Shown piece after piece: positions 35,495-59,919 of a stretch of 64,000 bases of DNA. How positions within the stretch are numbered: position 1 is the stretch's first letter; the number at the start of each line of letters is the position of its first letter. Location: the IMG/VR virus record IMGVR_UViG_3300017991_000103, positions 1 through 64,000 of that record. One strand, written 5' to 3'. The DNA is from a virus. The notes under the pieces are model-generated. The model was not told where the DNA came from. It did no database searches and saw only the letters and a program-made list of their open reading frames with translations. The position numbers and the translations under genes were made by a program.

Positions 35495-36109
35495 TTACAG
35501 AACCTCCTCTACTTTACTAATTCTCTTTTTCATTGATACCTCAAATATCTTGTCAGCACATTCAGTGAGTTCTTCTGAATGTGTAACCATTATTATTTGC
35601 AATCCAGCTTTCTCAGACATTTGCTTCAACATATCGCTTGCTTTGGGTAGAAGATTAGTTGATAAGTTTTTGAATGGTTCATCTAAAACAAGTAGAGGTC
35701 TTGAGCGAGGTCTTTGCATCGACCAGCTGGCGGTGCGTAAAGCAAATGCGGCCACATCTACCGCACCGCCACCAGTCGCCTCAAGGGGGTTGAATACTTT
35801 TTCATCACGCTCAAATAGTAAATCACACTCAGTCTTGTTTCTTCTTTGCACAAACTCCACGTTGAGTGTATAAGGATTGGAAAAGACTGAATCAAGAGCT
35901 AATGAAGCAACCTCAGAGATGTGAAACTGAAGTTGGGCTTGCGTTTTAAGGCCTACCTCTCTGATTATCTCTCGGGCCTTTTCATGACTTCGTAGACTTC
36001 GTTTAACTTGCTTGAGTTTCTTTTTGGCCGACTTAAGTTCACTTTCTATTCGGTCTCTTTCTCCTTTTTTTCGTTCAATAAGAGCTCGTGCTGAAGAAAC
36101 CTTACCCAT
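35495..36109 (-). CDS. SbcC/Rad50 C-terminal ATPase half
   Basis: 204 residues. A short coil (1-50), then ATGGGAVDVAAFALR at 111-125 as the ABC signature, PLLVLDEPF at 138-146 as Walker B, and MVTHSEE near 174 as the H-loop. This is the second half of a Rad50-type ATPase; Walker A lies on the separate product of 39182-40102. The two must associate to make ATP sites for DNA end processing with the nuclease at 36335. It overlaps the preceding coil gene by eight bases. Confidence 0.85.
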   Translation of the reverse strand: MGKVSSARALIERKKGERDRIESELKSAKKKLKQVKRSLRSHEKAREIIREVGLKTQAQLQFHISEVASLALDSVFSNPYTLNVEFVQRRNKTECDLLFERDEKVFNPLEATGGGAVDVAAFALRTASWSMQRPRSRPLLVLDEPFKNLSTNLLPKASDMLKQMSEKAGLQIIMVTHSEELTECADKIFEVSMKKRISKVEEVL

Positions 36110-36338
36110 CGTTTAACTCCTCTTCTAGTTCGGCAAGACCTTCATCAATTGTATTTTGGATTTTATGTGCATCCCTTTTTAGGTCTTTGACCATCTTTTT
36201 CGCCTGCATTATTGTTTCACATTTGAATTGAGTTTTAAGTTGCTCCACTAGAAGTTTTTTCTTACCCTTCAACTCAGATATTTCCTGGTTGATACTGGCC
36301 ATGTTTTCTTTGAGTTCTAATAATTGTCTTTCATTCAT
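36102..36338 (-). CDS. Coiled-coil protein of the split SbcC complex
   Basis: 78 residues, almost all heptad-like helix (LELKENMASINQEISELKGK, then LVEQLKTQFKC...LAELEEELND). Located between the nuclease gene and the SbcC C-terminal half, it may supply the ascending coil arm that the split Rad50 lacks. There is a single Cys (FKCETI), not a CxxC hook. GGAGGTGGAG precedes ATG 36338. Confidence 0.55.
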   Translation of the reverse strand: MNERQLLELKENMASINQEISELKGKKKLLVEQLKTQFKCETIMQAKKMVKDLKRDAHKIQNTIDEGLAELEEELNDG

Positions 36339-37243
36339 TTTATCTCCACCTCCAATGCTTCATAGATTATGTTTTTAATTTGTTCTTTAACATTATGTTT
36401 TTGTATAAACATTTCTATATTTTCCTTGAAGTCTAAACCTACTTCGATTTCTTCTGAAAGTCTTTCTACAAATGCTTCTATTCTCGCATCTCGTTGCTCT
36501 CTCCGTTCTATGTGTTCTCTTGAAACATCCTTTTTACCTATTGGAAATAAGAAAGGCTCTACTGTATTACTTTCTTCAAACCATAAATATACTTTTGGCT
36601 TATGATTTGCTTCCGATGCTTTCTGTCTGGTCAAGCAACCAGGGTTGACTAGTAATCTTCCTTCATGTTTAACAACGAATGATGCGTGGTTATCACCAGT
36701 TACAATAAGGTCGAATTCTGAGAATTCCTCTAATACCTCTTTTGCTGTGAGACCATCTTTATCCCAGTGCGGTGGTCTTTTTTCCCAAATGAGTTTATGC
36801 CATAAACCAACTACCATTTCAGAATCCACAAGTTCTATAACATGCGGTTTATCTGACCCGAAGTGGCCACCACTTGCTTTTGTCATTGTTCCTGCACTAA
36901 ATAGGGTTTCTATTCCACTCTTATACATTAACTCGAGATTATGCTGTGGCAAATCATGCTGCCCAGCTATTGCTATTACACCATATTCTTTAGAGTCATC
37001 ATAAAATGGTAGGTTAGCTACCACATTACTTAGTAAATACGGAGAAGGTTTCCAATGGTGAAATACATCACCTGCATGAAGTATAGGGATTCTACCATTT
37101 GAATAGTATAGTTCGTTTATTAGAAGAAGTTTATCCCACTGTGCTTGCATAAAGTTATCTGTTCTGCATTCAGGTATACTTTCTCTTATATGCCAGTCAC
37201 TAGTTAGAATCGCTGTTGCTTTCCCAAATTTAGTCCTCTTCAT
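36335..37243 (-). CDS. SbcD/Mre11-like nuclease
   Basis: 302 residues from ATG 37243 (AGGA upstream; in-frame GTG at 37255 also possible). Calcineurin-like phosphoesterase motifs in order: LTSDWHIRE near residue 13, HAGDVFHHWKP near 55, IAGQHDLP near 90, LIVTGDNHASFV near 180, VNPGCLTR near 203. The N of the usual GNHD is Gln here. It is the Mre11-type nuclease partner of the split Rad50, processing ends and joints during replication and recombination. Confidence 0.88.
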   Translation of the reverse strand: MKRTKFGKATAILTSDWHIRESIPECRTDNFMQAQWDKLLLINELYYSNGRIPILHAGDVFHHWKPSPYLLSNVVANLPFYDDSKEYGVIAIAGQHDLPQHNLELMYKSGIETLFSAGTMTKASGGHFGSDKPHVIELVDSEMVVGLWHKLIWEKRPPHWDKDGLTAKEVLEEFSEFDLIVTGDNHASFVVKHEGRLLVNPGCLTRQKASEANHKPKVYLWFEESNTVEPFLFPIGKKDVSREHIERREQRDARIEAFVERLSEEIEVGLDFKENIEMFIQKHNVKEQIKNIIYEALEVEIK

Positions 37244-37592
37244 AACTTTCCTCACTATATTTTATTGGGAGCCCATCACATAATTTTCTACATAGTGTAA
37301 ACTCCCATTTTTTAGTCCGCTCCTTATAAAAATCACATCCATATTTTATACAATCTTCTTCAGAATTTATGACAACATGCTTCCCCAAACCACCTCTTAT
37401 TTTTCTTGCGTGCTCTCTACCTACTTCCCTATTCCGTGCAAGTCGGCACTCCTTTTTACCACAGGTTGTTCTCTTATACGCATCGGAACCTATTATAGGC
37501 TTTCCACATACCGCACATACTTTTACTTCTTTTCCAGTGCGCATTTTCTCAGTGTATTCAAGTATTGCATATGCACTTTTTATAGCGTTCAT
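37230..37592 (-). CDS. Zinc-finger-like protein
   Basis: 120 residues. VCAVCGKPIIGSDAYKRTTCGKKECRLARNREVGR near 25-60 is a CxxC...CxxxxC zinc motif followed by a basic segment, suggesting nucleic-acid contact. A second Cys set (CIKYGCDFY, LCRKLCDG) follows. It overlaps genes on both sides by four to fourteen bases within the SbcCD operon, so a role in recombination is plausible but unproven. Confidence 0.65.
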   Translation of the reverse strand: MNAIKSAYAILEYTEKMRTGKEVKVCAVCGKPIIGSDAYKRTTCGKKECRLARNREVGREHARKIRGGLGKHVVINSEEDCIKYGCDFYKERTKKWEFTLCRKLCDGLPIKYSEESYEED

Positions 37593-38386
37593 AATCCTAA
37601 CTTCTCTTCCTTTTTTTTAGTTTCAATACACATAGTTAGAGCATCCTTAAATCCTTGAGAAAACCCTAATAGGAACTCGGTAGAAACCGTACCTTTAATC
37701 TGTGTCATTCTCTGATACATTGTTGAGTAGGTTTGTATCTGCTCAACGGCGTCGGGCTTTCCGCCGTATCCGAGGTCGTGCAAGATGGCGTGGGCTTCGG
37801 CGGGATTGGCAATAGTCGCAATGTGGCTTACATAATGCTCGCGGTCATTTGAATCTCTCATCATATAACTTGTCGATTTCGCTTCGACCTTTATGACTGT
37901 ACCCGGTGCGTATGGAATCGTGCGATAATTTTCCGCTATCCGCACCGCCGCATACGGCTTGAACTCCGGCTCCGGCTTGCGCTCGTTGTGCTCAAGTAGT
38001 TTTTGCGCGACGTAGCGGATGGTGGCCTCGCCGTATTTGTTGCAGGGGTAACACCCAGTGCCTTGCAACTCAGGGAAAATTTCTAATACATACCGATACC
38101 ATAAGTGACTGTCCCCACCCGGCCATCCCTCAGGGCATCCTTTCTCCAGCCATTCGCGCAATTCCGCGCACCGCTCCGGCGATAGGTTGATAAGGTTGTA
38201 GCGGGGCAGGGGGGTGGCTATAGATTTGCATAAATAATCTTTGCCATCCCGGTCAATAAAATAGGTCTCGTCATCCTCGGAATAGACCTTCGCCACATAG
38301 TAGACACCATCGGGACCTTCGTAAACCACATCAAAAGGCTCAACGTCCCACTGCCGTTGCTCCTGTCCACATTTTTCGCATTTCAT
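37589..38386 (-). CDS. Hypothetical chimeric protein, CxxC N-terminus
   Basis: 265 residues, not recognised. The start MKCEKCGQEQRQW is zinc-ribbon-like. A middle section (LSPERCAELREWLEKGCPEG) and GTGCYPCNKYGEATIRYVAQKLLEHNERKP are encoded in clearly GC-rich DNA. The last about 50 residues, from EQIQTYSTMYQRMTQI onward, are encoded by AT-rich DNA like the surroundings. This change within one gene looks like a recombination join. AGGGGGGC precedes ATG 38386. Confidence 0.5.
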   Translation of the reverse strand: MKCEKCGQEQRQWDVEPFDVVYEGPDGVYYVAKVYSEDDETYFIDRDGKDYLCKSIATPLPRYNLINLSPERCAELREWLEKGCPEGWPGGDSHLWYRYVLEIFPELQGTGCYPCNKYGEATIRYVAQKLLEHNERKPEPEFKPYAAVRIAENYRTIPYAPGTVIKVEAKSTSYMMRDSNDREHYVSHIATIANPAEAHAILHDLGYGGKPDAVEQIQTYSTMYQRMTQIKGTVSTEFLLGFSQGFKDALTMCIETKKKEEKLGL

Positions 38387-39180
38387 GATTTTGCCCCCCT
38401 TAATCTTTTAGTTATATGTTTAATCATTAACTTCTTGCCATTATTAGTCAGATGAAACAAGTCTGTAAAGTAAGTATCATCGAGTAATTTAGTAAGGTCT
38501 ATAAATGGTAAATCACTGTTTTTAAAATAGGAGACCATAGAATAGACCACCTTTGATACATCGTCGTGGTCAAAACCACTATGAGGATGGAGAACAAACA
38601 CTATATTTGGAAAGTCATCATATATCCTTTTGAATTTATCAAAGTCAAACTCAGCAGACTTATACTTTCTGCGCTGTCTAAGAGTCAAGTAGTCATGTCG
38701 ATTTTCCTCATCTTTAAAATCACTCATAGTTAAGAAAGGCTTACTGGAACCGATAACTACCCTTATTAGGTGTAATCTTCGTTTGAATGTTGGGTAAGCA
38801 ACAGCTTCAAGCAGTGGATTTCCATCTGACACTATTGCATCAAGAGGTGTTATAATGTATAATACCATTTCCGCTTCTTTTACTTCAGTTAAAGTATTCC
38901 TCAAGATACACTCCGAATTAGAACTACCACGAATACTGATATTGCAAAATTTTTCGTCCCCAAGGTCGGCTGCATACGAACTGCCAACTATTATTATGTT
39001 TGATTCTGATATGTTCTGTAAGTTTTTATCAACTAAAAGCAAATTTTTATCTAAACCACCCAGGTTTTGGTCTGGTAGAAAAGTATGTAGTAGTTGGCCT
39101 ACCATATTACTACTTAGTAGTATAATCACTGATATACAAAATAATAGGTAGTATATTGTAATTACATATATCTTTTTCAT
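38383..39180 (-). CDS. Membrane-anchored SGNH/GDSL-like protein
   Basis: 265 residues from ATG 39180, one base after the SbcC N-half stop. One transmembrane helix near 4-25 (IYVITIYYLLFCISVIILLS). Then IIIVGSSYAADLG near 62 as a possible nucleophile Ser block, and TDLFHLTNNGKKLM near 243 as the Asp-x-x-His-like end block. This resembles AlgX/DUF1574-type SGNH proteins that attach or remove acetyl groups on sugars. Orientation would place the catalytic part outside the membrane. It lies between two SbcC halves. Confidence 0.55.
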   Translation of the reverse strand: MKKIYVITIYYLLFCISVIILLSSNMVGQLLHTFLPDQNLGGLDKNLLLVDKNLQNISESNIIIVGSSYAADLGDEKFCNISIRGSSNSECILRNTLTEVKEAEMVLYIITPLDAIVSDGNPLLEAVAYPTFKRRLHLIRVVIGSSKPFLTMSDFKDEENRHDYLTLRQRRKYKSAEFDFDKFKRIYDDFPNIVFVLHPHSGFDHDDVSKVVYSMVSYFKNSDLPFIDLTKLLDDTYFTDLFHLTNNGKKLMIKHITKRLRGAKS

Positions 39181-39181
39181 A

Positions 39182-40102
39182 TCACATAGGCCTTTCACAT
39201 AATGGACACACATCAGGAAAATTATTTTCATATTCTTCTTCCAGTCTCTCGAGTTTAAACTCGATGGCTTCAGTTCTACTTCTCGTTGATTTAATTCTTG
39301 ATAAGATATTATCAATAGCGTTTGCACGAGCGTTCAACCCTTTCCTATCCTTCATGAGTTTTGCAATACTGTCAACCTTTTTGCTGAGTTTCTGTATAGG
39401 TTTTAATTCTTTGAGTGCAGATTCAACCGTTTTATATTGTGAAATATAGTCTTTCAACTGTATGGCCTTCATACTCTTTTCTGCTTTTTGTTTTTCTAAC
39501 CTCTCGAGTGCCTTAACTTTTTCTTCAAGAGATTCTATATTTTCAAATTGAGTTAATTGTAGTTTAAGTCCATCTATATGTTCTTCACTCGAAATAACTT
39601 TACGCTCTAAATCACGCAACCATCTTTGTACATTTTTTATACTTGAATCTATGGAATCTATATGTGCTAGAGTATTGAAATGTTTTGCAACTTCACCTGG
39701 ACTTGAAGTGAATAAATATAATAAGTCATGTTGTTGTTGTATACTTATAGGTGAAATTCTCAGTGCTTTTTGTACTTCCTCTGGAACTTCAGACCGTACT
39801 GCTTTGAAAATTAGAGCACCTTTAGTTGCGTCTGGGTTCCACATACCGTATTCATTCTGGTCTTTATTCCTAACACGCCATACAGTGAATTTACCTAAAT
39901 CAAGTTCGACGAATGTTGAACCTCCCCAGTCCGAACGAAACGAATCACCGCTAGGTCTATTTTCTACTAACCATATCAGTGCTCTTAATATTGCTGACTT
40001 TCCACTATCACTTGGACCTGTTATTACATTAACTCCAGGTGATAAGTCTAATATAGTTTCCTTGTGCGATTGAAAATTCCGTATTGTCAAGGTGTTAATC
40101 AT
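39182..40102 (-). CDS. SbcC/Rad50 N-terminal half ending at the zinc hook
   Basis: 306 residues. Begins LTIRNFQSHKETILDL, Walker A ITGPSDSGKSAILRALIW near 27-44, and ISIQQQHDLLYLF as the Q-loop region, followed by about 150 residues of coiled coil, and stops at CPLCERPM. The CxxC zinc hook that normally lies mid-protein is thus the C-terminus. The ATPase C-half is at 35495-36109, about 3 kb away. Split so exactly at the hook, the protein must work as two chains. Confidence 0.88.
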   Translation of the reverse strand: MINTLTIRNFQSHKETILDLSPGVNVITGPSDSGKSAILRALIWLVENRPSGDSFRSDWGGSTFVELDLGKFTVWRVRNKDQNEYGMWNPDATKGALIFKAVRSEVPEEVQKALRISPISIQQQHDLLYLFTSSPGEVAKHFNTLAHIDSIDSSIKNVQRWLRDLERKVISSEEHIDGLKLQLTQFENIESLEEKVKALERLEKQKAEKSMKAIQLKDYISQYKTVESALKELKPIQKLSKKVDSIAKLMKDRKGLNARANAIDNILSRIKSTRSRTEAIEFKLERLEEEYENNFPDVCPLCERPM

Positions 40103-43663: not shown

Positions 43664-44206
43664 CTACTGTTTATTATATGTTAGAGCTGCTTCAACTTGA
43701 CCTGCTATATAGTGAAGTATTTGTATATGCTCTTCTTGTATTTCATCTGTAAAGCAAGAAGAGGTAGTTATTAGAATAGAACAAGGAGCGAGAAATGGAG
43801 TGTTTTTATCTAAAGGCATGTTACCAACTAGCCCAACAGTCATAATACTTAAACCTCTCGCTTTATGCAGACCACGTATTACATTTTCCGATGTACCTGA
43901 GGTGGAAATTCCTATTGCCATATCATTAGGTTTACCATGTGCTTCAACCTGCCTTGAAAATACCTCTTCGTATCCATAATCATTTGCTATCGCAGTCATA
44001 ACTGCTGTATTGCAGTTGAGAGAAAGTGCATTTATTGGTTTCCTAGCCCTCATCATATATGCACCAACAAGTTCTGCAACAAAGTGGTCTGCTTGGCTTG
44101 CAGAACCACCGTTGCCGAATACCAATAACTTATTGCCATATTTTAGACACTCTACTATGTTGTGTATTGTATCTTCAACCGCTTGATTATCTTTAAAGTC
44201 GGCCAT
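43664..44206 (-). CDS. gmhA: Phosphoheptose isomerase (SIS domain)
   Basis: 180 residues, the family's usual length. GNGGSASQADHFVAELVGAY near 32-52, LSLNCNTAVMTAIANDYGYEEVFSRQV near 61-87, GISTSGTSENVIRGLHKA near 95-112 and EEHIQILHYIAGQVEAAL near 157 match GmhA throughout. It converts sedoheptulose 7-phosphate to a mannoheptose 7-phosphate. I prefer ATG 44206, with GAGGAGG about 11 bases upstream; GTG 44215 is too close to it. The transketolase halves on the + strand could supply its substrate. Confidence 0.85.
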   Translation of the reverse strand: MADFKDNQAVEDTIHNIVECLKYGNKLLVFGNGGSASQADHFVAELVGAYMMRARKPINALSLNCNTAVMTAIANDYGYEEVFSRQVEAHGKPNDMAIGISTSGTSENVIRGLHKARGLSIMTVGLVGNMPLDKNTPFLAPCSILITTSSCFTDEIQEEHIQILHYIAGQVEAALTYNKQ

Positions 44207-44211
44207 TATTA

Positions 44212-45258
44212 TCACAACCTCCTCTTTGGCTTTCTATTTGTGCTAAATTCAGATTCAATCTCTTCCCAAAGCCTTATTGTTTGATTGCGTAATTTGCGTT
44301 CTAACCCCTCGTTCTCCACTATTGCAATGGATTTCTCCATTGATTTATTTAACTTTGTCTTACCTGCGGTATATACCGTTTCACCTAAGCAAGTTTTGAC
44401 AAACTGAAGATTTTGACGAATATCATCTATACCATAATCAAAAATTATAGTTACTGGTGCTGACCTAAATGGCTTCCATACGGAACTTTTATGCACAAAA
44501 ACTTCGACCTCAACCCCAACTATTCTTGACTGGGGCTTACCCAGTACCCTTTTCTTCTCTTTAAGCTTCTTTGCTCCCCTACAGTGAAGTCGCAAACTTG
44601 CATAATGAGGTATTGCTTTACCACCTGGAGTACTATGTTTTGGCTCGAACGGACCTGCTCCAAAATTATCTCTTATCTGGTTGGTGCATACCAGAAGGTA
44701 ATTATTCTTTTTAAGAATACTGTTGGTTTTTCGCAACTCAGTACTGAATTCTTTTGCTCTTCTCCCACCGTATTCATCCTTATCAGCCATTTCCATCTCT
44801 GTGGTTAAAGCAGCTAATGAATCTGCACATATAATATGTGGTGCATCTTCGGGTGATGGTTCCCATTCTCTTATGGGCTTGAATATGTCAGGGACATAGT
44901 ATGGTATTATATAATTATCTTCGTCAACATGCATTCCAAACATTTGAGCAAACTGCCTATCAAGTCGAGCTTCAGGGTCAAAGAACATAAGTTCTCCACC
45001 TTTTCTTTGCACGTCACCTGCTATTTCACATGCAAGAACTGTTTTACCCGAGCTTGGAACACCAAATATTTCTACAAATATACCTAAGGGGATGCCACCA
45101 CCTTTGGCCCTACCCCCCGATATGGCGAGGTCAAGTAACGTTGAACCGGTGCTTATCATTGTAGTAGCGTCCCCTGAATATAAGGTCTTCTTCTTCTTAG
45201 TTTTTTTCTTCGCTCGTTTTTTTAATTGTGTACTGAGTGGTGTATTTGTTCTTTTCAT
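44212..45258 (-). CDS. recA: RecA-type recombinase
   Basis: 348 residues. Basic start (MKRTNTPLSTQLKKRAKKKT), then LDLAISGGRAKGGGIPLGIFVEIFGVPSSGKT, where GVPSSGKT is Walker A, FFDPEARLD as the metal-binding strand, HIICADSLAAL as Walker B and STPGGKAIPHYASLRLHCR as the L2-like region. It forms filaments for strand exchange and repair. The extra N-terminal Lys run is unusual. Overlaps the upstream gene by four bases; an internal hairpin in that gene may attenuate its mRNA. Confidence 0.9.
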   Translation of the reverse strand: MKRTNTPLSTQLKKRAKKKTKKKKTLYSGDATTMISTGSTLLDLAISGGRAKGGGIPLGIFVEIFGVPSSGKTVLACEIAGDVQRKGGELMFFDPEARLDRQFAQMFGMHVDEDNYIIPYYVPDIFKPIREWEPSPEDAPHIICADSLAALTTEMEMADKDEYGGRRAKEFSTELRKTNSILKKNNYLLVCTNQIRDNFGAGPFEPKHSTPGGKAIPHYASLRLHCRGAKKLKEKKRVLGKPQSRIVGVEVEVFVHKSSVWKPFRSAPVTIIFDYGIDDIRQNLQFVKTCLGETVYTAGKTKLNKSMEKSIAIVENEGLERKLRNQTIRLWEEIESEFSTNRKPKRRL

Positions 45259-48667: not shown

Positions 48668-49168
48668 TCATTTGTAGACAACAATAATATCTTTACACAC
48701 TTCATTTTCTAGTATAGGTTTAACCTCAGTACTCCAATCAAGCCGTCCATTTCCGCAACCAGGTCTGGGTATATATACTTTTAATGAACTTGGCAGCCTT
48801 TTTTCTTTTCTCAGTTTTGCAACCAGTCTTCTCAACCTAAGGTACGAATGCTTTATGAGTTCAGTATTTGAATCATATCTCCAGTGGTGTTTGGTTGGAA
48901 AAGTAAATATATTATACTCAGGGAAATAATATACAATATTGTGTGGTCTGTTTGCGGTTTTATTTGACTGTATTTTCATAGCTAGTTCTGCTGGTAGTCT
49001 AGGAAATCGGGTTGCGGCTTCCTTTGCAATACCTCTACCCATGACTACCTTACCTCTTGTGTTAATTATAGGATTAGTAGTAACCGCTATTGGGTTACCT
49101 TCACTATGAAATTCCCAAATGTCACCTTTTACTTCTATTAAGCTACTAGTGCTTCTTTTTCTGACCAT
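48668..49168 (-). CDS. Macro domain (ADP-ribose-binding-like) protein
   Basis: 166 residues. DIWEFHSEGNPIAVTTNPII near 16-35, GKVVMGRGIAKEAATRFP near 39-56 and VYIPRPGCGNGRLDWSTEVKPIL near 128-150 are the strand-loop blocks of macro domains that bind ADP-ribose derivatives. Such phage proteins may remove ADP-ribose marks or bind host signal nucleotides. It overlaps the end of the polymerase gene by 31 bases and lies between polymerase and clamp loader. Confidence 0.72.
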   Translation of the reverse strand: MVRKRSTSSLIEVKGDIWEFHSEGNPIAVTTNPIINTRGKVVMGRGIAKEAATRFPRLPAELAMKIQSNKTANRPHNIVYYFPEYNIFTFPTKHHWRYDSNTELIKHSYLRLRRLVAKLRKEKRLPSSLKVYIPRPGCGNGRLDWSTEVKPILENEVCKDIIVVYK

Positions 49169-50544
49169 GGTTTATCAACCTCACAACGTTCTATTTTCAT
49201 CTCTAGTGGAACAATAATCCAACGCCATGCTTTTGGTAAATCTCCGCAACTTATTTCTCTGACTACCCTTACTACATGGTCGAGCTCTGATGGGTGAATA
49301 TCCATCAGTATAGAGTCGTGTATCTGACCAATTAACCGGCTTTTCCACTTTTCTCGTCTCATCACCTCATCAATCCTATTGAATGACCACATAAGACAAT
49401 GAAATGCGCTACCTTGAATAGGGGTATTCCCACACTGTCTTTTATCCATTAAGTCGGACACTGTGAATCCTGATAATAATTCTATATATCCTTTTTTAAT
49501 ATACTCTTCCCACCACTCGTCTTTCCATTGATTATACACCCTGAATCTTGAATTCCAGAATCTCTTTTCTATACGTTTTATATGAGTTACAAATTGCTTG
49601 TATGAACCTATTCCATTTTGTATCAACCAATCAGATAAGTGAGCATCTTCTCCAACAGATGGCATTACTATTCCTTGTCCTGATTTCCATTTAGATTGTG
49701 GTAATTTACCCCACTTGCAAGCAAGGTTGAACGCACACCCTTCATAATAATCACCATAGAATTGTGGGAACACAAAACCGTTCTTTGTAGCATCTCTAAG
49801 TCTGTCATGTTCATGGATTGATTCATCGAAGTTATTGAGTAGGTATATCTCCTGAGCCATGTCTCGGTGCATATCAGTTGTAGGGTCTTCTACGTATTGT
49901 CTCATTTTTGGGTCTTTGTGGTAACATATTGATACCCTTACTTCTATACCTGAGTAGTCAAACTCAACCAACAAGTAACCTTCTCTTGGTAAGAGACCAC
50001 CTCTCACTATTTGCATAGCAAAGTCATCTCTTTTTGGAATGTTCTGGAGATTAGGATGGTCAGAAGATGACCTGAAAGTTCTAACTAAATGAAGGTTGAA
50101 TACAGGATGAATGATGTTATTAACTTGTTCTCTTGCAAGTTGCTTTATATACGTGTCTCTAATCTTTTTCAACTTCCTAGCAGTTAATAACCACTGAAGT
50201 TCTTTTATGCCTAAGTAGGTAAGAGAATCATCATCGGTTGCTCCTTGACCACCCATTTTAGTTCTCTTAGGTGGTTTCAACTTCTTTTTCTTATATAAAT
50301 AATACGAGAGTTGTTGACTTGAGTATATGTTAAATTTAACTTTCTTTATTGAAGACTTCCAATTTTTAACAAATTCACTTTTATGTAATCTTTTCTCGAG
50401 TTTCTTTATTCTTTTAGTAAGCCGTTCTTCTTGCTCCTTGAAATATTCAGTATCTATTCTAACTCCTTGCATTTCTGCTCTTGCAAGAGCTTGAGCACCG
50501 TCATGGAATAATTGGTATGCCTCTAATGTATTTGCTTTCACCAT
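49138..50544 (-). CDS. DNA polymerase, family A (polymerase domain only)
   Basis: 468 residues. Motif A LLVEFDYSGIEVRVSICY, an O-helix-like RLRDATKNGFVFPQFYG, and motif C IGQIHDSILMDI. The catalytic Asp in motifs A and C are present; the usual Glu after HD is Ser. The K-to-Y spacing of the O-helix seems one residue longer than in E. coli Pol I. No 3'-5' exonuclease domain precedes it; one is fused to a uracil-DNA glycosylase at 51305. Overlaps the PAPS-reductase-like gene start by one base. Confidence 0.88.
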   Translation of the reverse strand: MVKANTLEAYQLFHDGAQALARAEMQGVRIDTEYFKEQEERLTKRIKKLEKRLHKSEFVKNWKSSIKKVKFNIYSSQQLSYYLYKKKKLKPPKRTKMGGQGATDDDSLTYLGIKELQWLLTARKLKKIRDTYIKQLAREQVNNIIHPVFNLHLVRTFRSSSDHPNLQNIPKRDDFAMQIVRGGLLPREGYLLVEFDYSGIEVRVSICYHKDPKMRQYVEDPTTDMHRDMAQEIYLLNNFDESIHEHDRLRDATKNGFVFPQFYGDYYEGCAFNLACKWGKLPQSKWKSGQGIVMPSVGEDAHLSDWLIQNGIGSYKQFVTHIKRIEKRFWNSRFRVYNQWKDEWWEEYIKKGYIELLSGFTVSDLMDKRQCGNTPIQGSAFHCLMWSFNRIDEVMRREKWKSRLIGQIHDSILMDIHPSELDHVVRVVREISCGDLPKAWRWIIVPLEMKIERCEVDKPWSEKEALVA

Positions 50545-51308
50545 TATAGTATCCTTTTAAGTTTAAACATCCCATCTATGTATGGGTCACCTTTTATATC
50601 ACTTGTATGCAACCACCATCTGAAGAGCTCTTCACCCGAATCCCATTTATTAAGTAGTTTGCCTTTTTTCTTTCGGTGTTCATAAAGTTTAATAAACGCT
50701 TTAATAAAGGCTTTCTCAAACTTTGGGTAAGTTTGAGCGTGTAAAATTCTTTCCCTTCGTGTCGCATTTGGACAAAATAAACATCCTATACGGTGCCACT
50801 CACCATTATATAGGGAACAATAAGGTATATTTTCTTTTATTATGTACCTCCACACATCTTCAGATGACCAATCAAGTATTGGATTTATTATGGTGCATTT
50901 ATCGTTCGTTCTGCTTTTTTCATATACCTTTCTACTTTTTCTATTCACTGATTCCTCATGTCGCAAACCCATCAGTAGTGAACCGTCAGGTTTAAACGAT
51001 TCTTTGAATTCTGCGCAACACCATCTCTGATGTCTAAGAGGTGGAAACCCATGATAAAACAATCTTTTAAGAAAGGGTACCTTTGGTCTCATCCAAGTAA
51101 TATCACTATGATATTTACGCATAAAGTATATAACTTCTGGTGGGTCTATTGTTGTAACATTATAGAATGGAATGTATTTAACCTTTGCTCTATCTGCAAG
51201 GTGGCGCATGACAATACTATCTTTTCCACCTGAGAATGCAAGCCAATAACCTTCATCAGGTTCAAACTCTTTTAGTATCTCTATTGACCTTTTTATAAAG
51301 TGCCTCAT
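50544..51308 (-). CDS. PAPS reductase-family protein
   Basis: 254 residues from ATG 51308 (ATGA overlap; a TTG start at 51326 would add six). WLAFSGGKDSIVMRHL near 22-37 is the PP-loop, RHQRWCCAEFK near 90-100 and IGCLFCPNATRRER near 174-187 supply CC and CxxC. This matches CysH-type PAPS reductase/sulfurtransferase-like phage proteins; DndC-like DNA phosphorothioation cannot be excluded. It sits between the polymerase and the UDG-exonuclease genes. Substrate unknown. Confidence 0.75.
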   Translation of the reverse strand: MRHFIKRSIEILKEFEPDEGYWLAFSGGKDSIVMRHLADRAKVKYIPFYNVTTIDPPEVIYFMRKYHSDITWMRPKVPFLKRLFYHGFPPLRHQRWCCAEFKESFKPDGSLLMGLRHEESVNRKSRKVYEKSRTNDKCTIINPILDWSSEDVWRYIIKENIPYCSLYNGEWHRIGCLFCPNATRRERILHAQTYPKFEKAFIKAFIKLYEHRKKKGKLLNKWDSGEELFRWWLHTSDIKGDPYIDGMFKLKRIL

Positions 51309-52570
51309 TCTATCCAACTTTCGCAACCTATTTCTTCCATTTGTTGTAGTGCTAACTTATATTCAAATAAACTATCAAGACCACAATACTTCAGAGCCTC
51401 TTCCTTTCGGCCCATTTCATACACATACTTCTCGAGTTTATTAAACGCATTTGCATTGGCAGACCCTGATGTTAAATACCGTTCTATCTCACTAGCGTAA
51501 TCAACCACTCCGAAATGCACATATGCTTGGAACTTCAAACTGGTTATACCGCTCCTATTGTCGATAATATGTGCGGCTTGCATAGTGTCCCATACCCAGT
51601 TTTGAACTTCAGTCTTAAGTTTCACCTTACTCCATATGTGCTCGAACTTTAAATTCGCTGCTCCCTTACCTATATTCTCATTTGTCAACAACCTTAGGAA
51701 TGGTTTTCTAGCTCTAGGTGTATTAGGCATTTCAAATGCGAAGGCCTTGTCTGGTGCAACTCCGACAGATGCTAGTAGTATCTTATGACCTTTAGCATGT
51801 GGTTTCAATCCGGTACATTCATAATCAAAGGTTATAAATTTTACTTTGTTTTCAAAGGAAGATAGTATAGATAAGTCCTCTATTATTTCCACCTGGTCCC
51901 GTTCATTTGGAAATGATGGAAAGGGTGCTTTTATAAACTTCAAAGCATTTCGTAAGTCTTTGAGCCATATAGTTTCTACAATACCTTCATTATCTCTTTC
52001 AACAAAACTTGGATGATATGTAGGGCATACCCAAGCATGAAAGTCCCTATCTGGTATATTCCACCCTCTCCATACTGATATTTTGTCTGCTTTGCCTTTT
52101 GCACCTGCAGTTAAGCCTCTCGTCCATCTGTGACCTAAAAAGGACTGAACTGCTGAGCCACCTAGGAGAAGTATTAATCTAGGTTTGTTTTGGTCAATGA
52201 CTTTTAGTACCCTCTTTCTGCAACAAGCTATTTCCATATCTGTAGGCTTTCTATTTCTTCCCTTTTCGTCTATTGGCCTACAGTTTATTGAGTTAATATT
52301 TAGACAATCTTTAAATAAGTCAATTCCCATAGAACTTAAGGTGCGTTTCAACCTTCTTCCTACTTTACCTTGCCACTGCTTTCCATTACGGTCTTCTGTC
52401 TCACCAGGAGCCTCACCTATAATAAGTATTTTCTTTTTGAATTTACCAAACGGCTCCATACGCGGGCTTAAGACATTCTTATATAAACCGCATGAGACAC
52501 AAGTATGCTTCGTGCTTGTGCCTAATCTATTCTTAACCTGGTCTCGGTCAAAGAAACTTTTCATAGCCAT
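51305..52570 (-). CDS. Uracil-DNA glycosylase (family 4) fused to 3'-5' exonuclease
   Basis: 421 residues from ATG 52570 (AGGAT upstream, overlapping no other gene). N-terminal family 4 UDG: CVSCGLYKN, IIGEAPGETEDRNGKQWQG near 48-66, NSINCRPIDEKGRNRKP and CPTYHPSF, with the cysteines that ligate an iron-sulfur cluster. C-terminal DnaQ/Pol I-type exonuclease: FITFDYECTGLKPHAKGHKI with D-x-E, AANLKFEHIW and KYCGLDSLFEYKL. SPO1-type polymerases carry UDG, exonuclease and polymerase in one chain; here the polymerase is a separate gene. Confidence 0.85.
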   Translation of the reverse strand: MAMKSFFDRDQVKNRLGTSTKHTCVSCGLYKNVLSPRMEPFGKFKKKILIIGEAPGETEDRNGKQWQGKVGRRLKRTLSSMGIDLFKDCLNINSINCRPIDEKGRNRKPTDMEIACCRKRVLKVIDQNKPRLILLLGGSAVQSFLGHRWTRGLTAGAKGKADKISVWRGWNIPDRDFHAWVCPTYHPSFVERDNEGIVETIWLKDLRNALKFIKAPFPSFPNERDQVEIIEDLSILSSFENKVKFITFDYECTGLKPHAKGHKILLASVGVAPDKAFAFEMPNTPRARKPFLRLLTNENIGKGAANLKFEHIWSKVKLKTEVQNWVWDTMQAAHIIDNRSGITSLKFQAYVHFGVVDYASEIERYLTSGSANANAFNKLEKYVYEMGRKEEALKYCGLDSLFEYKLALQQMEEIGCESWIE

Positions 52571-52575
52571 AGTAT

Positions 52576-53580
52576 TTATCCTACTAGAGACATTACATGA
52601 ATCCAATTATCGCCTGAGAATTTTGCCATCTTCTCACTTAATATACACTCTCTAAGTTGGTCAACAATATCACTCAGGAAGTTTGGGTTCATTTTGAATG
52701 AGTGTTCCTCTCCCTTGTATGATACCTTTGCTTTTTCTCTAAACCAACCTTGGGCGTTTCTTGCAGATATTTGCACTTTATTTTTCTTAAAACTTAGTGT
52801 AACTGCTTCATCTATGTAGTGGTCGGCCTTGGCAAATATGGCTGCGCGTGATAATATCTCTTTAATATTCTCAGGGAATAGAATCTCACGCCCTTCTACT
52901 TCAAGGTGGGATGAAGTGTCGGGAAAAGTGGCATCTTCATATATCCTGCATGAGAACATGGTGCCTTCCTTTGTTCTAAAGTGCACCCAACCTGATGATA
53001 GGCTTACCTTCTTAATATCATATTTAAGTACCTCTCGTGCTGTGGTACCTGGAAGTAGGAAGGTGGGAATAGGCATCTTTTCTGGCATTTCATATTGGGT
53101 TATTCTATATCCGTCTGACGATTCTATCACACCATCTTGCCTTACATGGATGCAAGTTAGATTTGGACGGCTCATATCTGCTGAACAAGAGAAGCTGGTG
53201 AAATTTATCGCGGTGGTGAACTCTTCTGGAAGTTTGAACCATTTCTTTTTTGACTTTATTTCCTCAAGAGGAAGTCTAACATCTTCAGTTAGAGCTAAAC
53301 CTATCTTTGCTTTTCCTGCTTTGAGTCGAAGTTCATTTTCATTTGCGGTAATCTTAACAGCATCTCCTTTTGCTTTACCTAGGAACTTGTATAATTCATC
53401 GGCGGGAACAACACCTTTCACATTTAGACCATCAAGTGGGTGGGAAATGCTTATTTCATCATTGTAGGTTACCACCTTATCACCTATAAATGCAAAAGAG
53501 GTGGTCTGCTCAATCACTTCCTTATCTGCAAGACCTGGCTTCACAATTTCTAACGCTTTTAGAAGTTCAGCCCTTTCCAT
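52576..53580 (-). CDS. Sliding clamp (DnaN-like)
   Basis: 334 residues, three repeats of a beta-clamp-like fold: MERAELLKALEIVKPGLADK, KVVTYNDEISISHPLDGLNVKG near 33-54, FTSFSCSADMSRPNLTCIHVRQDGVIESSDGYRI near 127-160 and the third domain. ASDGYRI-type sequences (SSDGYRI) are typical of DnaN. It tethers the family A polymerase and is loaded by the product at 47744. GGAGGTGC precedes ATG 53580. Confidence 0.8.
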   Translation of the reverse strand: MERAELLKALEIVKPGLADKEVIEQTTSFAFIGDKVVTYNDEISISHPLDGLNVKGVVPADELYKFLGKAKGDAVKITANENELRLKAGKAKIGLALTEDVRLPLEEIKSKKKWFKLPEEFTTAINFTSFSCSADMSRPNLTCIHVRQDGVIESSDGYRITQYEMPEKMPIPTFLLPGTTAREVLKYDIKKVSLSSGWVHFRTKEGTMFSCRIYEDATFPDTSSHLEVEGREILFPENIKEILSRAAIFAKADHYIDEAVTLSFKKNKVQISARNAQGWFREKAKVSYKGEEHSFKMNPNFLSDIVDQLRECILSEKMAKFSGDNWIHVMSLVG

Positions 53581-54550: not shown

Positions 54551-55067
54551 TGAACATAACCCTTAACCTTTCACTCATTGGGAGAGTTACTTCGTCGAGT
54601 ATACCAACAGGAACTGTATATAAATCTTTATAGATTAGAGTAGCAGGATTAACCCTTATACACAATCTATTCTTGTTACCTGTTGATTCTCTCATGTGCC
54701 ATCCGTATGTTTTTACAAGGTCGCGAACCAAGCATGGTCCAGCATACTTGTGTCTAAGTATACCATCTGGCCTGTAAACAAACAGCATCCAGTACTCACC
54801 AAAGGATTCGATGGCACTTTCCACATCTTCCATCTCACATTGCCTTAGTTTAATATAGACCTGACTATCATTTGAGAATCGGATGAAACCGAACCACTTC
54901 CTTTTTCTCTTGTTGTTAACAAAAGCATAGTCAAGTCCACGCTCTTTTGGCCACTCAAGTCTTAGTTCTGAATGAACAGATTTAAGATATGTATTTACAT
55001 AATTTGCTACTTGTCTCCTATCTTCCTTTCCCTTTTCAAAGTCTCTGAACTTCTTAAAAGATGGCAT
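54486..55067 (-). CDS. Hypothetical protein downstream of dpdA-like gene
   Basis: 193 residues from ATG 55067 (AAAAAGGAGGC upstream; 55088 also possible). MPSFKKFRDFEKGKEDRRQV, then WFGFIRFSNDSQVYIKLRQC near 63, and AGPCLVRDLVKTYGWHMREST. Basic, alpha/beta, not recognised. Overlap with the dpdA-like gene suggests co-expression and perhaps a role in DNA modification. Confidence 0.5.
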   Translation of the reverse strand: MPSFKKFRDFEKGKEDRRQVANYVNTYLKSVHSELRLEWPKERGLDYAFVNNKRKRKWFGFIRFSNDSQVYIKLRQCEMEDVESAIESFGEYWMLFVYRPDGILRHKYAGPCLVRDLVKTYGWHMRESTGNKNRLCIRVNPATLIYKDLYTVPVGILDEVTLPMSERLRVMFNENILSNVAVRARAGECSDQC

Positions 55068-55992
55068 TGGTTGTGCCTCCTTTTTCAAATGGCCAAGGCC
55101 ATTTCCTGAAAGACTTTTCCAAATCTACAAAATACAGTATGTTCAACTCATCTCTCAACTGGTATCGGTTACTCACCCCCTCTTCTTCTATTATTTCAAG
55201 TTTCCTTTTCTGGTCTGGGTCTGCTGGTCTCTTTTCAGCCCACCTCTCATTTTGTCTCACAGTATGGGTCTGCTTAACCTTTTTGAACCGCGACGCACCC
55301 ACTTTATAACCTTTACTATGTATATAGTCTATTATGATGTCTCTTTGTCTTGGGGTGAAAGTGCTTATATGTTTACCAGCTTCCTTAGTATTAGGGCTTT
55401 GACTTGACACACATACAGACCATGACCGTTCATCATAAACCCACCCACCATTTTTATATCTAGGAACAAGGATAGTGCCCATTCTTGAACTCATAACCCA
55501 GGTAGTTGAATCGACAGAATACCATGGGTATCTTAACATAAGTTTTAGACCGGTCAATCCGAAACCATGAACTTTGGTCTTAGGCATTCTATCGGGGGTA
55601 TCACATATTACATTGAAGCATCGGTCTAAAAACATCATTCTGGTCTTAGGTGTGAAACCTCTTGCCATCCCACCTAAGCAGAAGTATGGGTATTCCAAAC
55701 ATCTATCCAAATACTTTCTTCCCTTACTAGTTTTTTCATCACTTAGATGGTATACTGGTAACGGATTAAGACCAGCTTTCTCCATTATCCTTTGGTTGCG
55801 CCAGGTAGCCTTTGCATCACCTATGACATCAAGATTTGCATACACATCTATGATGTCCTCATGCTTTTTTATAAATGCTATGTAATCGTCTATATCAATT
55901 TTAGTGTCTTGAGTCCAAGCTGAGAATGCTCCTGAATCTAGGAATAAGTCAACCATTCTTTGTTTATTTTTTCTCTTGCTCTTTTTGGTCAT
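55054..55992 (-). CDS. dpdA: DpdA-like 7-deazaguanine DNA transglycosylase
   Basis: 312 residues from ATG 55992 (GAGG six bases upstream). After a basic start, LFLDSGAFSAWTQDTKIDID near 15-35, VYANLDVIGDAKATWRNQRIM near 50-70, FCLGGMARGF near 104, KVHGFGLTGLKLMLRYPWYSVDSTTW near 138-163. These are blocks of TGT-like barrels in phage DpdA proteins, which exchange guanine in DNA for preQ0. Other DpdA/TGT proteins begin with MKIYLA-like sequence, absent here. The linked folE, queC, queE and queD genes support the call. About 150 bp of AT-rich sequence without a gene separates it from folE. Confidence 0.72.
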   Translation of the reverse strand: MTKKSKRKNKQRMVDLFLDSGAFSAWTQDTKIDIDDYIAFIKKHEDIIDVYANLDVIGDAKATWRNQRIMEKAGLNPLPVYHLSDEKTSKGRKYLDRCLEYPYFCLGGMARGFTPKTRMMFLDRCFNVICDTPDRMPKTKVHGFGLTGLKLMLRYPWYSVDSTTWVMSSRMGTILVPRYKNGGWVYDERSWSVCVSSQSPNTKEAGKHISTFTPRQRDIIIDYIHSKGYKVGASRFKKVKQTHTVRQNERWAEKRPADPDQKRKLEIIEEEGVSNRYQLRDELNILYFVDLEKSFRKWPWPFEKGGTTNAIF

Positions 55993-56143
55993 ACGCATCC
56001 TCACTTTATATTTAGGATAGGAATCATATAGAAGATATATAACTCTTTTCTTACCTATGATTACCTCTCAGCTATATTTGAACTTCATATATTTTTGCTG
56101 ATTAGGAGATAATATAGATACTGTTACTCTATCGTAATCTACG

Positions 56144-57001
56144 TCACTTTATTGGTGCCGTACAGAGTGTTATAAATTCATCCCTTACTTTGTGCTCAGT
56201 TAGGAATATACCTTTCATAGAAGAGTACACCATTGTGGAGTCTCTTTTAACACCTCTGCAGCCCATACACATGTGCTTTCCTATTGTAATACATCCACAT
56301 CCTTTTGGTCTAAAATACTTCATCATTGCATTAGTTACTTGTTCTCCTATGCGCTCTTGCATTTGTAATCGCCGTGCGAAAGCATCGAGTAACCTGATTA
56401 TCTTACTTGCACCAAGAACAGGACCATCTGGAATATATCCTATATGGGCAACACCGCTGAATGGTAGCATATGATGTTCACAGGTGGAGAAGAATTCTAT
56501 GTCCCTTTTTATCACAAGACCTTCATATTTCTCTTCGTCTTCGAACTCCTTGAATATAGATTCAATGTCTGCACCATAGCCGGCATAAATCTCTTTAAAC
56601 GATTCTACAATTCTTTTCGGGGTTTCTTGCAAGCCTTTACGCATTGGGTTATCACCAATATGTTCTATTATCCGAACTATATTATCGTGCACTCCTTCTT
56701 CAGATGCAGGATGTTCGGCTTCCCACGGGAATACAAGCCATGGGTCTTTAGGTGTTTTACTATACAGTGAGATAAACGGTGCTGTGTACTTTTCTTGATA
56801 AAACTGCCTGGTTCGACCAGTATACTCAACATCGTCGAGTATTAAATCCGCATCAGCAGGATTCATGGTTGCAACTGCATTTTTCAGGAATGCAGTAAGT
56901 ATCATTCCATTTTTTGGAACACCATATATGTGATACCCTATTATATCAACAGATTCGAGTTTTGAAAGAACCACGTCCCAACTGATATACTTTTTAAACA
57001 T
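56144..57001 (-). CDS. folE: GTP cyclohydrolase I with N-terminal PRTase-like domain
   Basis: 285 residues. Residues 1-100 resemble a phosphoribosyltransferase: IYGVPKNGMI and ADLILDDVEYTGRTRQFYQ, the DDxxxTGxT ribose-phosphate loop. Residues 103-285 are FolE: NPMRKGLQETPKRI, FFSTCEHHMLPFSGVAHIGY, QMQERIGEQVTNAM and MCMGCRGVKRDSTMV, with the zinc Cys and His residues present. FolE makes dihydroneopterin triphosphate for QueD. The fused domain might capture a base or act on a nucleotide. AAGGAG precedes ATG 57001. Confidence 0.85.
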   Translation of the reverse strand: MFKKYISWDVVLSKLESVDIIGYHIYGVPKNGMILTAFLKNAVATMNPADADLILDDVEYTGRTRQFYQEKYTAPFISLYSKTPKDPWLVFPWEAEHPASEEGVHDNIVRIIEHIGDNPMRKGLQETPKRIVESFKEIYAGYGADIESIFKEFEDEEKYEGLVIKRDIEFFSTCEHHMLPFSGVAHIGYIPDGPVLGASKIIRLLDAFARRLQMQERIGEQVTNAMMKYFRPKGCGCITIGKHMCMGCRGVKRDSTMVYSSMKGIFLTEHKVRDEFITLCTAPIK

Positions 57002-57012
57002 GAACTTTCTCC

Positions 57013-57660
57013 TTATTTGAAGTGTATTTTTGACGGGTCTACCATATCATACCATATTTTTATTGCATCATCTGGTAGCATGAATTCGGGTGCAAGTAGA
57101 TTTTGTAACATATCTACTGAATTTTCGGGTTCGATGATAAATCGTGGGGATAGTAATACTGTATGTCTTTTAAAACTTGCACTAAGCATACCGTAACAGA
57201 ATAATCTGCTAAGTTCAATTTGACCTGGAGATTGTTTTAACAAATCGCAATCTGTTTCAAAGTGAGGGTGCCTTAACTCTTTGGAGGCAACAATATCCTT
57301 TGTATCTCTCCAAAGTATTATAAACTTATCTTCGCGGTCACCTCTTTCCTCAAGCCAGATTCGAAGTATAGAGGGGTGCATTAATAGATAAGAGAATTTT
57401 ATAATCCTATCCTTTTCACTCCCGAGTGACTCCAATGGCTCGAATCGTTCTCTAGGTTCTATCATATCCCAGTAATTGGAAAATGGGAAATCAGGAATTT
57501 CCAAAGCCTCTCTGTAGTATGCACAGACATCTGGATTCTCATATCCGCCATCCACCTCGTCGTGCCAGAATTTGGTTCCTAAATCGAAGCCGCATTTAAC
57601 AAAAAAGGAAGCCAAGAAACTAGTCCCCGACCTTTGAGCACCTGTTATTACAGCTAACAT
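57013..57660 (-). CDS. Sulfotransferase-like protein in the deazaguanine cluster
   Basis: 215 residues. LAVITGAQRSGTSFLASFF at residues 2-20 is a sulfotransferase-type P-loop, and FIILWRDTKDIVASKELRHP near 113-132 resembles the 3'-phosphate-binding segment. It is similar in design to 17104-17829 but lies between queC and folE. It may act on an unrelated glycan or on a modified base; nothing in the sequence decides. AGGAGAG precedes ATG 57660. Confidence 0.65.
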   Translation of the reverse strand: MLAVITGAQRSGTSFLASFFVKCGFDLGTKFWHDEVDGGYENPDVCAYYREALEIPDFPFSNYWDMIEPRERFEPLESLGSEKDRIIKFSYLLMHPSILRIWLEERGDREDKFIILWRDTKDIVASKELRHPHFETDCDLLKQSPGQIELSRLFCYGMLSASFKRHTVLLSPRFIIEPENSVDMLQNLLAPEFMLPDDAIKIWYDMVDPSKIHFK

Positions 57661-57669
57661 AGTTCTCTC

Positions 57670-58356
57670 CTATTCGTAATCTATTGGGTCTTTTACACCT
57701 GCTATTTCAAAAGCTTCTAACCTCTCGACACAACTTCCGCACTTACCACACGCTTTATCTCTCCCATTGTAACAAGTTGTAGTAAGAGCGAAAGGCACCT
57801 TCATTGCTAAACCCCACTGAATTATTTCATGCTTTGTCATATTCATAAGTGGGGCTTCTATTTGCACTTTACCTTCAGTAGCATAATACATTACAATATT
57901 CATGGCTGCAACATATTCAGGTCTGCAGTCTGGATAGATTGCATGGTCACCCTCATGTGCACCAAATAATATTGTTGGTGCACCAACGGTTTCTGCTTTA
58001 CCCATTAGCATACTTAGGAATATAGTATTTCTAGCAGGCACCACTGTCGACTTCATTTTAGCATCTGTATAATGTCCTTCAGGAATTTGTTTTGGACTTC
58101 TTTTTAGCAGACTTGTTGCTGTTGCAAACTGTGAGACAACCCCTCGCACGTCAAAAAAATCTAGGGATAAATGGTTCTCATAATCCCTATAGTAATATAC
58201 TAGACGCATTGAAGCATTGTATTCGACATCATTGTGTCGAGACCCATAGTGGAAGAAACAGCACCAAATATCAGCACCCTGCTCGAGTAGATACCCGAGC
58301 AGGGTTGCCGAATCGGTGCCACCAGACAATGCTAACACTGCTTTAGTCTGTGGCAT
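57670..58356 (-). CDS. queC: 7-cyano-7-deazaguanine synthase QueC
   Basis: 228 residues, normal length. VLALSGGTDSATLLGYLLEQG near 7-27 is the PP-loop, PARNTIFLSMLMGKAE near 107-122 and YNGRDKACGKCGSCVERLEAF near 196-216 contain the zinc-binding cysteines of QueC. It converts carboxy-deazaguanine to preQ0. Motifs for substrate binding (GAHEGDHAIYPDCRPEY) are present. GGAGAC precedes ATG 58356. A perfect inverted repeat lies near its start codon. Confidence 0.92.
   Translation of the reverse strand: MPQTKAVLALSGGTDSATLLGYLLEQGADIWCCFFHYGSRHNDVEYNASMRLVYYYRDYENHLSLDFFDVRGVVSQFATATSLLKRSPKQIPEGHYTDAKMKSTVVPARNTIFLSMLMGKAETVGAPTILFGAHEGDHAIYPDCRPEYVAAMNIVMYYATEGKVQIEAPLMNMTKHEIIQWGLAMKVPFALTTTCYNGRDKACGKCGSCVERLEAFEIAGVKDPIDYE
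58277..58304. repeat. Inverted repeat near the start of queC
   Basis: CCCTGCTCG (58277-58285) and CGAGCAGGG (58296-58304) pair around a 10-nt loop, about 52 bases after the queC start on its mRNA. There is no T run. It may slow translation or bind a protein; it may equally follow from the two LLGYLLEQG-like codon runs. Seen directly; function unknown. Confidence 0.4.
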
Positions 58357-58368
58357 ATGTATGTCTCC

Positions 58369-59871: not shown

Positions 59872-59893
59872 TTCAACCACCTCTCTTTCATAT

Positions 59894-59918
59894 ATTATAT
59901 TGTGGATTATTAGTTTGC
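59894..59918 (-). promoter_or_regulatory. Early promoter, GCAAAC-N13-TATAAT class
   Basis: On the - strand GCAAAC (59913-59918), 13 bp, TATAAT (59894-59899), with the CACAA element shared with the promoter at 60615. Transcription would begin near 59887, only about 16 bases before GTG 59871. It lies right after queE and drives the acidic-protein gene. Confidence 0.7.
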
Positions 59919-59919
59919 G

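What the first reader, a model, noticed from the sequence alone, without database searches (positions are those of the whole stretch)
35495..40102. SbcC/Rad50 split exactly at its zinc hook
The N-half stops at CPLCERPM, leaving the hook as its C-terminus. The C-half has the ABC signature and Walker B, and a separate 78-residue coil lies next to it. The halves are 3 kb apart with zinc-finger, SGNH-like and nuclease genes between. A Rad50 made of two or three chains would need a new way to join its arms.
Basis: seen in the sequence. Interest (0 to 1): 0.68.

Follow-up and report, generated by a model that had tools for sequence, protein, structure and literature searches.

The report
Rad50 cut open at its hook
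A large family of phages makes the DNA-repair ATPase Rad50 as separate proteins cut exactly at the zinc hook, with a small conserved helper protein, and relatives on bacterial megaplasmids have the two halves rejoined in reverse order, so the usual closed Rad50 arm is not needed for this machine to be kept by evolution.

Summary
N-half (39182-40102, ends CPLCERPM), Mre11-like nuclease (36335-37243), 78-aa helical protein (36102-36338) and C-half (35495-36109) are four genes on one strand. The same order (N, nuclease, small protein, C) occurs in 95 of 124 fetched loci; no reading frame carries both halves. In 90 of 93 distinct complete N-halves the CxxC lies 2-38 (median about 6) residues from the C-terminus. 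In T4 gp46 and E. coli SbcC it lies mid-chain. Thirty large records each hold one C-half, and no fused SbcC was found.

The decisive new evidence comes from plasmids. Bacillota plasmids carry the split form, two of them with nuclease and N-half fused. Megaplasmids of Pseudomonadota carry a circularly permuted Rad50 (C-half then N-half in one chain) that still ends at the hook, with a small helical gene upstream and a nuclease-like gene downstream. So the halves are one ATPase and the opened hook is the family's defining trait.

The small protein's fixed length does not follow the N-arm, which varies in about 47-residue steps, so a simple "return arm" reading fails for most members. I found no description of this architecture. 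No complex was modelled or tested.

The parts
39182..40102 (-). Rad50/SbcC N-half: Walker A lobe, arm of two ~47-residue repeats, C-terminal zinc-hook motif CPLC (residues 299-302 of 306)
36335..37243 (-). Mre11/SbcD-like metallophosphoesterase (302 aa from ATG 37243); D15, H17, D58, H95, D96, H148 and H185 of the family invariant
36102..36338 (-).
35495..36109 (-). Rad50/SbcC C-half: ~50-residue coil, signature GGG, Walker B, H-loop; start codon overlaps the end of the 78-aa gene
38383..39180 (-). Intervening SGNH-like gene, 265 aa, starts 2 nt after the N-half stop; cargo, not part of the machine
37589..38386 (-). Intervening gene of unknown function, 265 aa; not seen in relatives
37230..37592 (-). 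Intervening Cys-rich (zinc-finger-like) gene, 120 aa; not seen in relatives

Best explanation
This is a Mre11-Rad50 (SbcCD) DNA-end-processing nuclease whose Rad50 is built in trans and is open at the hook. SHOWN by sequence: the N-chain carries the Walker A lobe and ends at the zinc-hook CxxC; the C-chain carries the signature and Walker B lobe; an Mre11-like nuclease and a ~78-aa helix-loop-helix protein are encoded with them; the set is conserved in phages; on plasmids the nuclease can be fused to N, or C can be fused in front of N (circular permutation), with the hook always terminal. INFERRED: one N and one C chain form one ABC half-head, and two such heads sandwich ATP; the nuclease dimer sits at the base of the arms; the short C-chain coil pairs with the root of the N-arm; the N-arm is a tandem of ~47-residue helical repeats, braced by the small helical protein, and brings the CxxC to its free end, where two N-chains share one zinc. 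Because the descending arm is not covalently continuous, the arms need not enclose DNA as a closed protein loop and could open without breaking the hook. In this phage, which has a UvsX-like recombinase, sliding clamp and clamp loader, it most likely does what T4 gp46/47 does: make 3' ends for recombination-dependent replication and repair.
For: Profile matches to solved Rad50 and Mre11 and Foldseek matches of the N model to Rad50 (best 1f2u_A, E 1e-7). Conserved four-gene order in 95 of 124 loci, no ORF matched by both N and C profiles. CxxC within 2-38 residues of the C-terminus in 90 of 93 distinct complete N-halves, also in the distant phage Tunturi_5, whose halves lie ~108 kb apart. In 30 large records: one C-half each; one N-half each by A1 (10 records) or PF13476 over cut-off (28 of 30), with N frames of 305-472 aa and C frames of 203-252 aa, so no fused SbcC. 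Rosetta-stone fusions: nuclease-N in Paenibacillus and Geobacillus plasmids; C-then-N in one chain in 11 examined megaplasmid genes, C-lobe matches E 3e-11 to 1e-23 and N-lobe matches E 3e-16 to 1e-35 in that order, hook 7-58 residues from the end. Permuted forms and nuclease-N fusions each monophyletic, support 1.0. Catalytic motifs invariant or nearly so. UvsX, clamp and clamp loader in the window.
Against: No complex was predicted or tested; only single chains could be modelled, and the N model has pTM 0.41. Membership of the 78-aa protein in the complex rests on gene order and conservation alone; outside the main clade its similarity is weak. The hook is not universal: phage Magritte's N-half has no CxxC and L035 has lost one Cys. 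Several gammaproteobacterial permuted systems have a nuclease-like partner without the usual motifs. IMG/VR records are not certified complete.
Confidence: 0.82

Rival explanations
1. The small helix-loop-helix protein is simply the missing descending arm: N-arm, small protein and C-coil together rebuild a normal antiparallel Rad50 coiled coil of equal arm lengths.
For: For the window phage the numbers roughly fit: outgoing arm about residues 148-294, return 78 aa plus ~50 aa of the C-half; T4 gp46 has its hook at 288 of 560, so its C-part is about 65 residues longer than this C-half.
Against: Across the family the hook position steps through about 296, 340, 386 and 457 while the small protein stays 75-100 aa and the C-half mostly 197-214 aa, with correlations of 0.17 and 0.15. 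The modelled protein has a break in the middle.
Confidence: 0.3
2. The split genes are scars of homing-endonuclease insertion (as in T4 60/39 or Aeh1 nrdA), with halves that merely still work.
For: Phage genes are split this way (PMC2988022); a few relatives have HNH, NUMOD or AP2 genes between the halves.
Against: Only a handful of 84 scanned intervening genes are endonuclease-like. What lies between the halves is the complex's own nuclease and the small protein, in the same order in 95 loci. The cut is always at the hook, and the permuted plasmid forms keep it there.
Confidence: 0.08
3. Sequencing error, frameshifted pseudogene or programmed frameshift.
For: None found.
Against: Conserved across about 100 loci and named complete records; adjacent small-protein and C frames are not in a fixed relation (24, 13 and 4 in the three phases); motifs intact.
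Confidence: 0.01
4. N and C halves are not partners; each works in another ATPase.
For: In Magritte and Tunturi_5 the halves are far apart in the genome.
Against: One of each per genome, shared operon, and natural fusion of the two in permuted Rad50s.
Confidence: 0.03

Closest known systems
T4 gp46/gp47 and E. coli SbcCD (Rad50-Mre11)
   Same: ABC-SMC head motifs, CxxC hook at the far end of a helical arm, partner metallophosphoesterase, recombination-gene neighbourhood
   Different: There one Rad50 chain with the hook in mid-chain (288 of 560; 506 of 1048); here the chain ends at the hook, the C-lobe is a separate chain (or is fused in front of N), and an extra small helical subunit candidate is present
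Mre11/Rad50 fusion proteins (Mimivirus R555 and others, PMC3175470)
   Same: Rearranged MR genes in viruses and plasmids; nuclease fused to Rad50; that paper notes two fusions (Anaerostipes, Bacillus phage 0305phi8-36) in which one P-loop NTPase segment was not observed, which may be members of this family (not tested)
   Different: That work reports fusions of Mre11 with Rad50; it does not mention a split at the hook (no 'split' or 'zinc hook' in its text), a permutation of Rad50 or a small helical partner
PHROG families phrog_16465 ('exonuclease') and phrog_15167 ('ATPase')
   Same: These are the N-half and C-half families (E 2e-39 and 1e-25), so the pieces are catalogued
   Different: Listed separately, without a shared system, hook position or small partner
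Engineered two-chain Rad50 heads (PDB 1f2t/1f2u, 1ii8, 3qkr)
   Same: N-lobe and C-lobe as separate chains form one ATPase head (separate chains; that they are engineered truncations is from my own knowledge)
   Different: Truncations without the hook; here natural, with hook and arm retained on the N chain
T4 topoisomerase 60/39 and Aeh1 nrdA split genes (PMC2988022)
   Same: Phage enzyme made from a gene broken in two
   Different: There a mobile endonuclease made the break; here the break is widespread, always at the hook, with functional partner genes between

Membership tests
Rad50/SbcC | N-lobe with Walker A | tested here: met
   G29, G34, K35 invariant in 40 sequences; PDB Rad50 matches
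Rad50/SbcC | C-lobe with signature, Walker B, H-loop | tested here: met
   G113, D143, E144 invariant in 42 sequences; H177 in 34 of 42; PDB Rad50 3aux E 6e-16
Rad50/SbcC | CxxC hook at the far end of a helical arm | tested here: met
   C299 and C302 aligned in all 40 sequences of A1, but at the chain terminus
Rad50/SbcC | Both lobes in one chain joined by an antiparallel coiled coil that turns at the hook | tested here: not met
   Separate genes, no ORF with both; permuted relatives also leave the hook open
Rad50/SbcC | Zinc-mediated hook dimerisation and ATP-driven head engagement | not testable with these tools
   needs protein work
Mre11/SbcD | Phosphoesterase metal-binding motifs | tested here: met
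   D15, H17, D58, H95, D96, H148, H185 invariant; N94 is Q in 18 of 39 (window included) and the first His of GHxH is D in 31 of 39
Mre11/SbcD | C-terminal Rad50-binding helices | tested here: inconclusive
   A C-terminal region of helical character is present in the alignment, but PDB matches cover only the phosphoesterase and part of the cap
Homing-endonuclease split gene | Endonuclease gene at the break | tested here: not met
   None in the window; rare in relatives

The most novel reading that the evidence does not exclude
An open-hook Rad50 family: Rad50 ATPases of phages, plasmids and megaplasmids in which the coiled-coil arm is severed at the zinc hook, either as separate chains or as a circular permutant, braced by a dedicated helical hairpin subunit, so that the complex clamps and processes DNA without ever forming a covalently closed arm.
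Probability: 0.6. Interest if true: 0.85.

Novelty: new variant of a known kind. Interest (0 to 1): 0.75.

Why it matters
Models of Rad50 and SMC machines rest on a head-arm-hook chain that runs out and back. A large natural family in which the chain is cut exactly at the hook, and a permuted relative that keeps the cut there, says the continuous return arm is dispensable while the hook itself is kept. That makes directly testable which jobs (tethering, ATP signalling along the arm, DNA entrapment) need a closed arm. It also gives structural biologists short, separable chains, including one set from a Geobacillus plasmid.

Tried and rejected
Sequencing error and frameshift. A second full-length SbcC in the record. 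Programmed frameshift between the small protein and C: frames not fixed. Idea that the conserved Cys of the small protein completes the zinc site: only 27 of 38 have it, and by eye hook variants do not follow it. Homing endonuclease at the break. Sequence or fold relatives of the small protein in the PDB: none convincing. Rooting the tree with T4 gp46 and SbcC: too few alignable columns, and the IQ-TREE run failed; the tree is unrooted, so whether splitting or permutation came first is open (the 'monophyletic versus fused outgroup' line is empty, since the outgroups had been dropped). Phage and IMG/VR scans with the permuted and nuclease-N proteins found no close relatives there apart from vB_BboS-125, so permuted forms are known here only from plasmids. 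Literature search for a split or permuted Rad50 gave nothing in the open-access library.

Full report
OBSERVATION. The window is part of a 69,478-bp virus record. On the minus strand lie, in order of transcription: N-half 40102-39182 (306 aa, ends ...FPDVCPLCERPM), an SGNH-like gene, a 265-aa gene, a 120-aa Cys-rich gene, an Mre11-like nuclease 37243-36335, a 78-aa helical protein 36338-36102 and the C-half 36109-35495. Start and stop codons of the last three overlap, and plausible ribosome sites precede the small protein and C, so they look translationally coupled (read from the sequence). Profiles built from relatives match solved Rad50 (N: E 1e-13; C: E 6e-16) and Mre11 (E 4e-10). The record holds one N and one C and no fused copy.

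CONSERVATION. Scans of IMG/VR with N, C and a C alignment fetched about 110 loci; one pattern alone gave 291 confirmed relatives of the C-half. A GTDB genome scan gave only 11 contigs, all from metagenome-assembled genomes and many of them short (that they are stray phage contigs is my reading). Of 124 loci, 95 have N-nuclease-small protein-C in that order; the rest are mostly truncated, and a few are rearranged. No reading frame is hit by both N and C profiles. Among 93 distinct complete N-halves, 90 have CxxC 2-38 residues from the end, usually 4-8; of the three exceptions L121 also ends CPLCGRSDA, L035 has lost one Cys, and Magritte has no CxxC. For contrast the hook is at 288 of 560 in T4 gp46 and 506 of 1048 in E. 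coli SbcC. Of 96 loci with all four genes, 11 have all three junctions tight, while others have unrelated genes at one or more of them. So the ancestral unit looks like a compact four-gene operon into which cargo was inserted; the window phage is at the loose end at the N-nuclease junction. In cultured phages the parts are also separate: vB_BboS-125 (N 471 aa, AP2 protein, 78-aa protein, C 211 aa), Magritte (C at 0.3 kb, N at 93.8 kb, nuclease at 119.6 kb, an 81-aa small protein at 127.2 kb) and Tunturi_5 (C at 19 kb, N at 127.7 kb ending in CGKC plus ten residues). In 30 large records every one has exactly one C-half and none has a fused SbcC.

ROSETTA STONES. A tblastn of the C-half against plasmids led to relatives with known hosts. 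Alkaliphilus pB6464 and B. velezensis p3 have the split form with a 77-91 aa small gene next to C. Geobacillus subterraneus pGspE55-1 and Paenibacillus polymyxa pSC2 have the nuclease fused to N in one 801-841 aa chain that ends 20-22 residues after CPxC, followed by a 92-96 aa small gene and a 212-215 aa C-half. Megaplasmids of Variovorax, Bosea, Acidiphilium, Rhizobium, Pseudomonas, Vibrio, Methylorubrum, Aeromonas and Alteromonas carry a 546-772 aa protein with the C-lobe first (Walker B near residue 102-168) and the N-lobe second (Walker A near 224-302), ending 7-58 residues after CxxC: a circular permutation of Rad50 cut at the hook (Methylorubrum's Walker B did not match the simple pattern used). 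In the nine annotated cases a 97-213 aa gene lies directly upstream, and its start shows the same helix - (F/Y)G(T/V)x(D/S) - helix layout as the small phage proteins (judged by eye, profile similarity is weak). A nuclease-like gene lies directly downstream; in Bosea, Variovorax and Acidiphilium it keeps the motifs, while in several gammaproteobacterial cases the usual motifs are missing. These fusions are strong evidence that N, C and nuclease form one machine. The permuted forms are one clade (support 1.0), as are the two nuclease-N fusions (unrooted).

STRUCTURE. AlphaFold2 gives the small protein two helices, 3-38 and 43-77, with high local confidence (pLDDT 95, pTM 0.57); I read this as a hairpin, but the angle between the helices was not available to me. 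The N-half model has a Rad50-like lobe, a helix 148-185 and a long helix 189-294 up to the hook (pTM 0.41). The N-arm shows a ~47-residue repeat: similarity at lag 47 stands 40 standard errors above shuffles and lag 94 stands 18 above. Hook positions cluster near 296, 340 and 386, with 457 once. The small protein (75-100 aa) and C-half (mostly 197-214 aa) do not follow these steps. So equal-length antiparallel arms can hold at most for the shortest members such as this one; I favour the small protein as a brace or cap on the N-arm, in unknown copy number.

FUNCTION. The window also encodes a UvsX-like recombinase, clamp loader, sliding clamp, family A polymerase and a DnaB-like helicase. With an Mre11-type nuclease whose core motifs are intact the likely role is that of T4 gp46/47: processing DNA ends for recombination-dependent replication. 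This is inference from the families involved.

WHAT IS KNOWN. PHROGs lists the halves as separate families. Papers describe Mre11/Rad50 fusions in viruses and plasmids (PMC3175470), split phage genes caused by homing endonucleases (PMC2988022) and T4 Rad50 (PMC13402864). I found no account of a Rad50 split or permuted at the hook, but the library misses most subscription journals. Verdict: real, conserved, a new variant of Mre11-Rad50, with an unexplained extra subunit candidate.

Noticed in passing
49138-50544 and 51305-52606 (-): The phage's family A DNA polymerase is also in two genes: a uracil-DNA-glycosylase plus 3'-5' exonuclease protein and a polymerase protein, both matching parts of phrog_17, with a PAPS-reductase-like gene (50544-51326) between them.
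   Followed up: partly
55054-60582 (-): A 7-deazaguanine-type cluster (queuine tRNA-ribosyltransferase-like, GTP cyclohydrolase, QueC-like, QueE-like) suggests modified phage DNA.
   Followed up: no
L153, L158-L160, L162, L164 (megaplasmids): The nuclease-like partner of several permuted Rad50s lacks the usual phosphoesterase motifs (for example Alteromonas, Aeromonas, Vibrio), hinting at complexes without nuclease activity.
   Followed up: partly
36335-37243 (-) and family A4: Metal ligands vary together: Q in GxHD occurs only with D in GxNH (18 of 18) and H in GxNH only with N in GxHD (8 of 8).
   Followed up: no
39182-40102 (-) and relatives: The N-arm is a tandem of ~47-residue helical repeats whose number varies between phages.
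   Followed up: partly
43664-44215 (-): A SIS-domain protein sits next to the UvsX-like gene.
   Followed up: no
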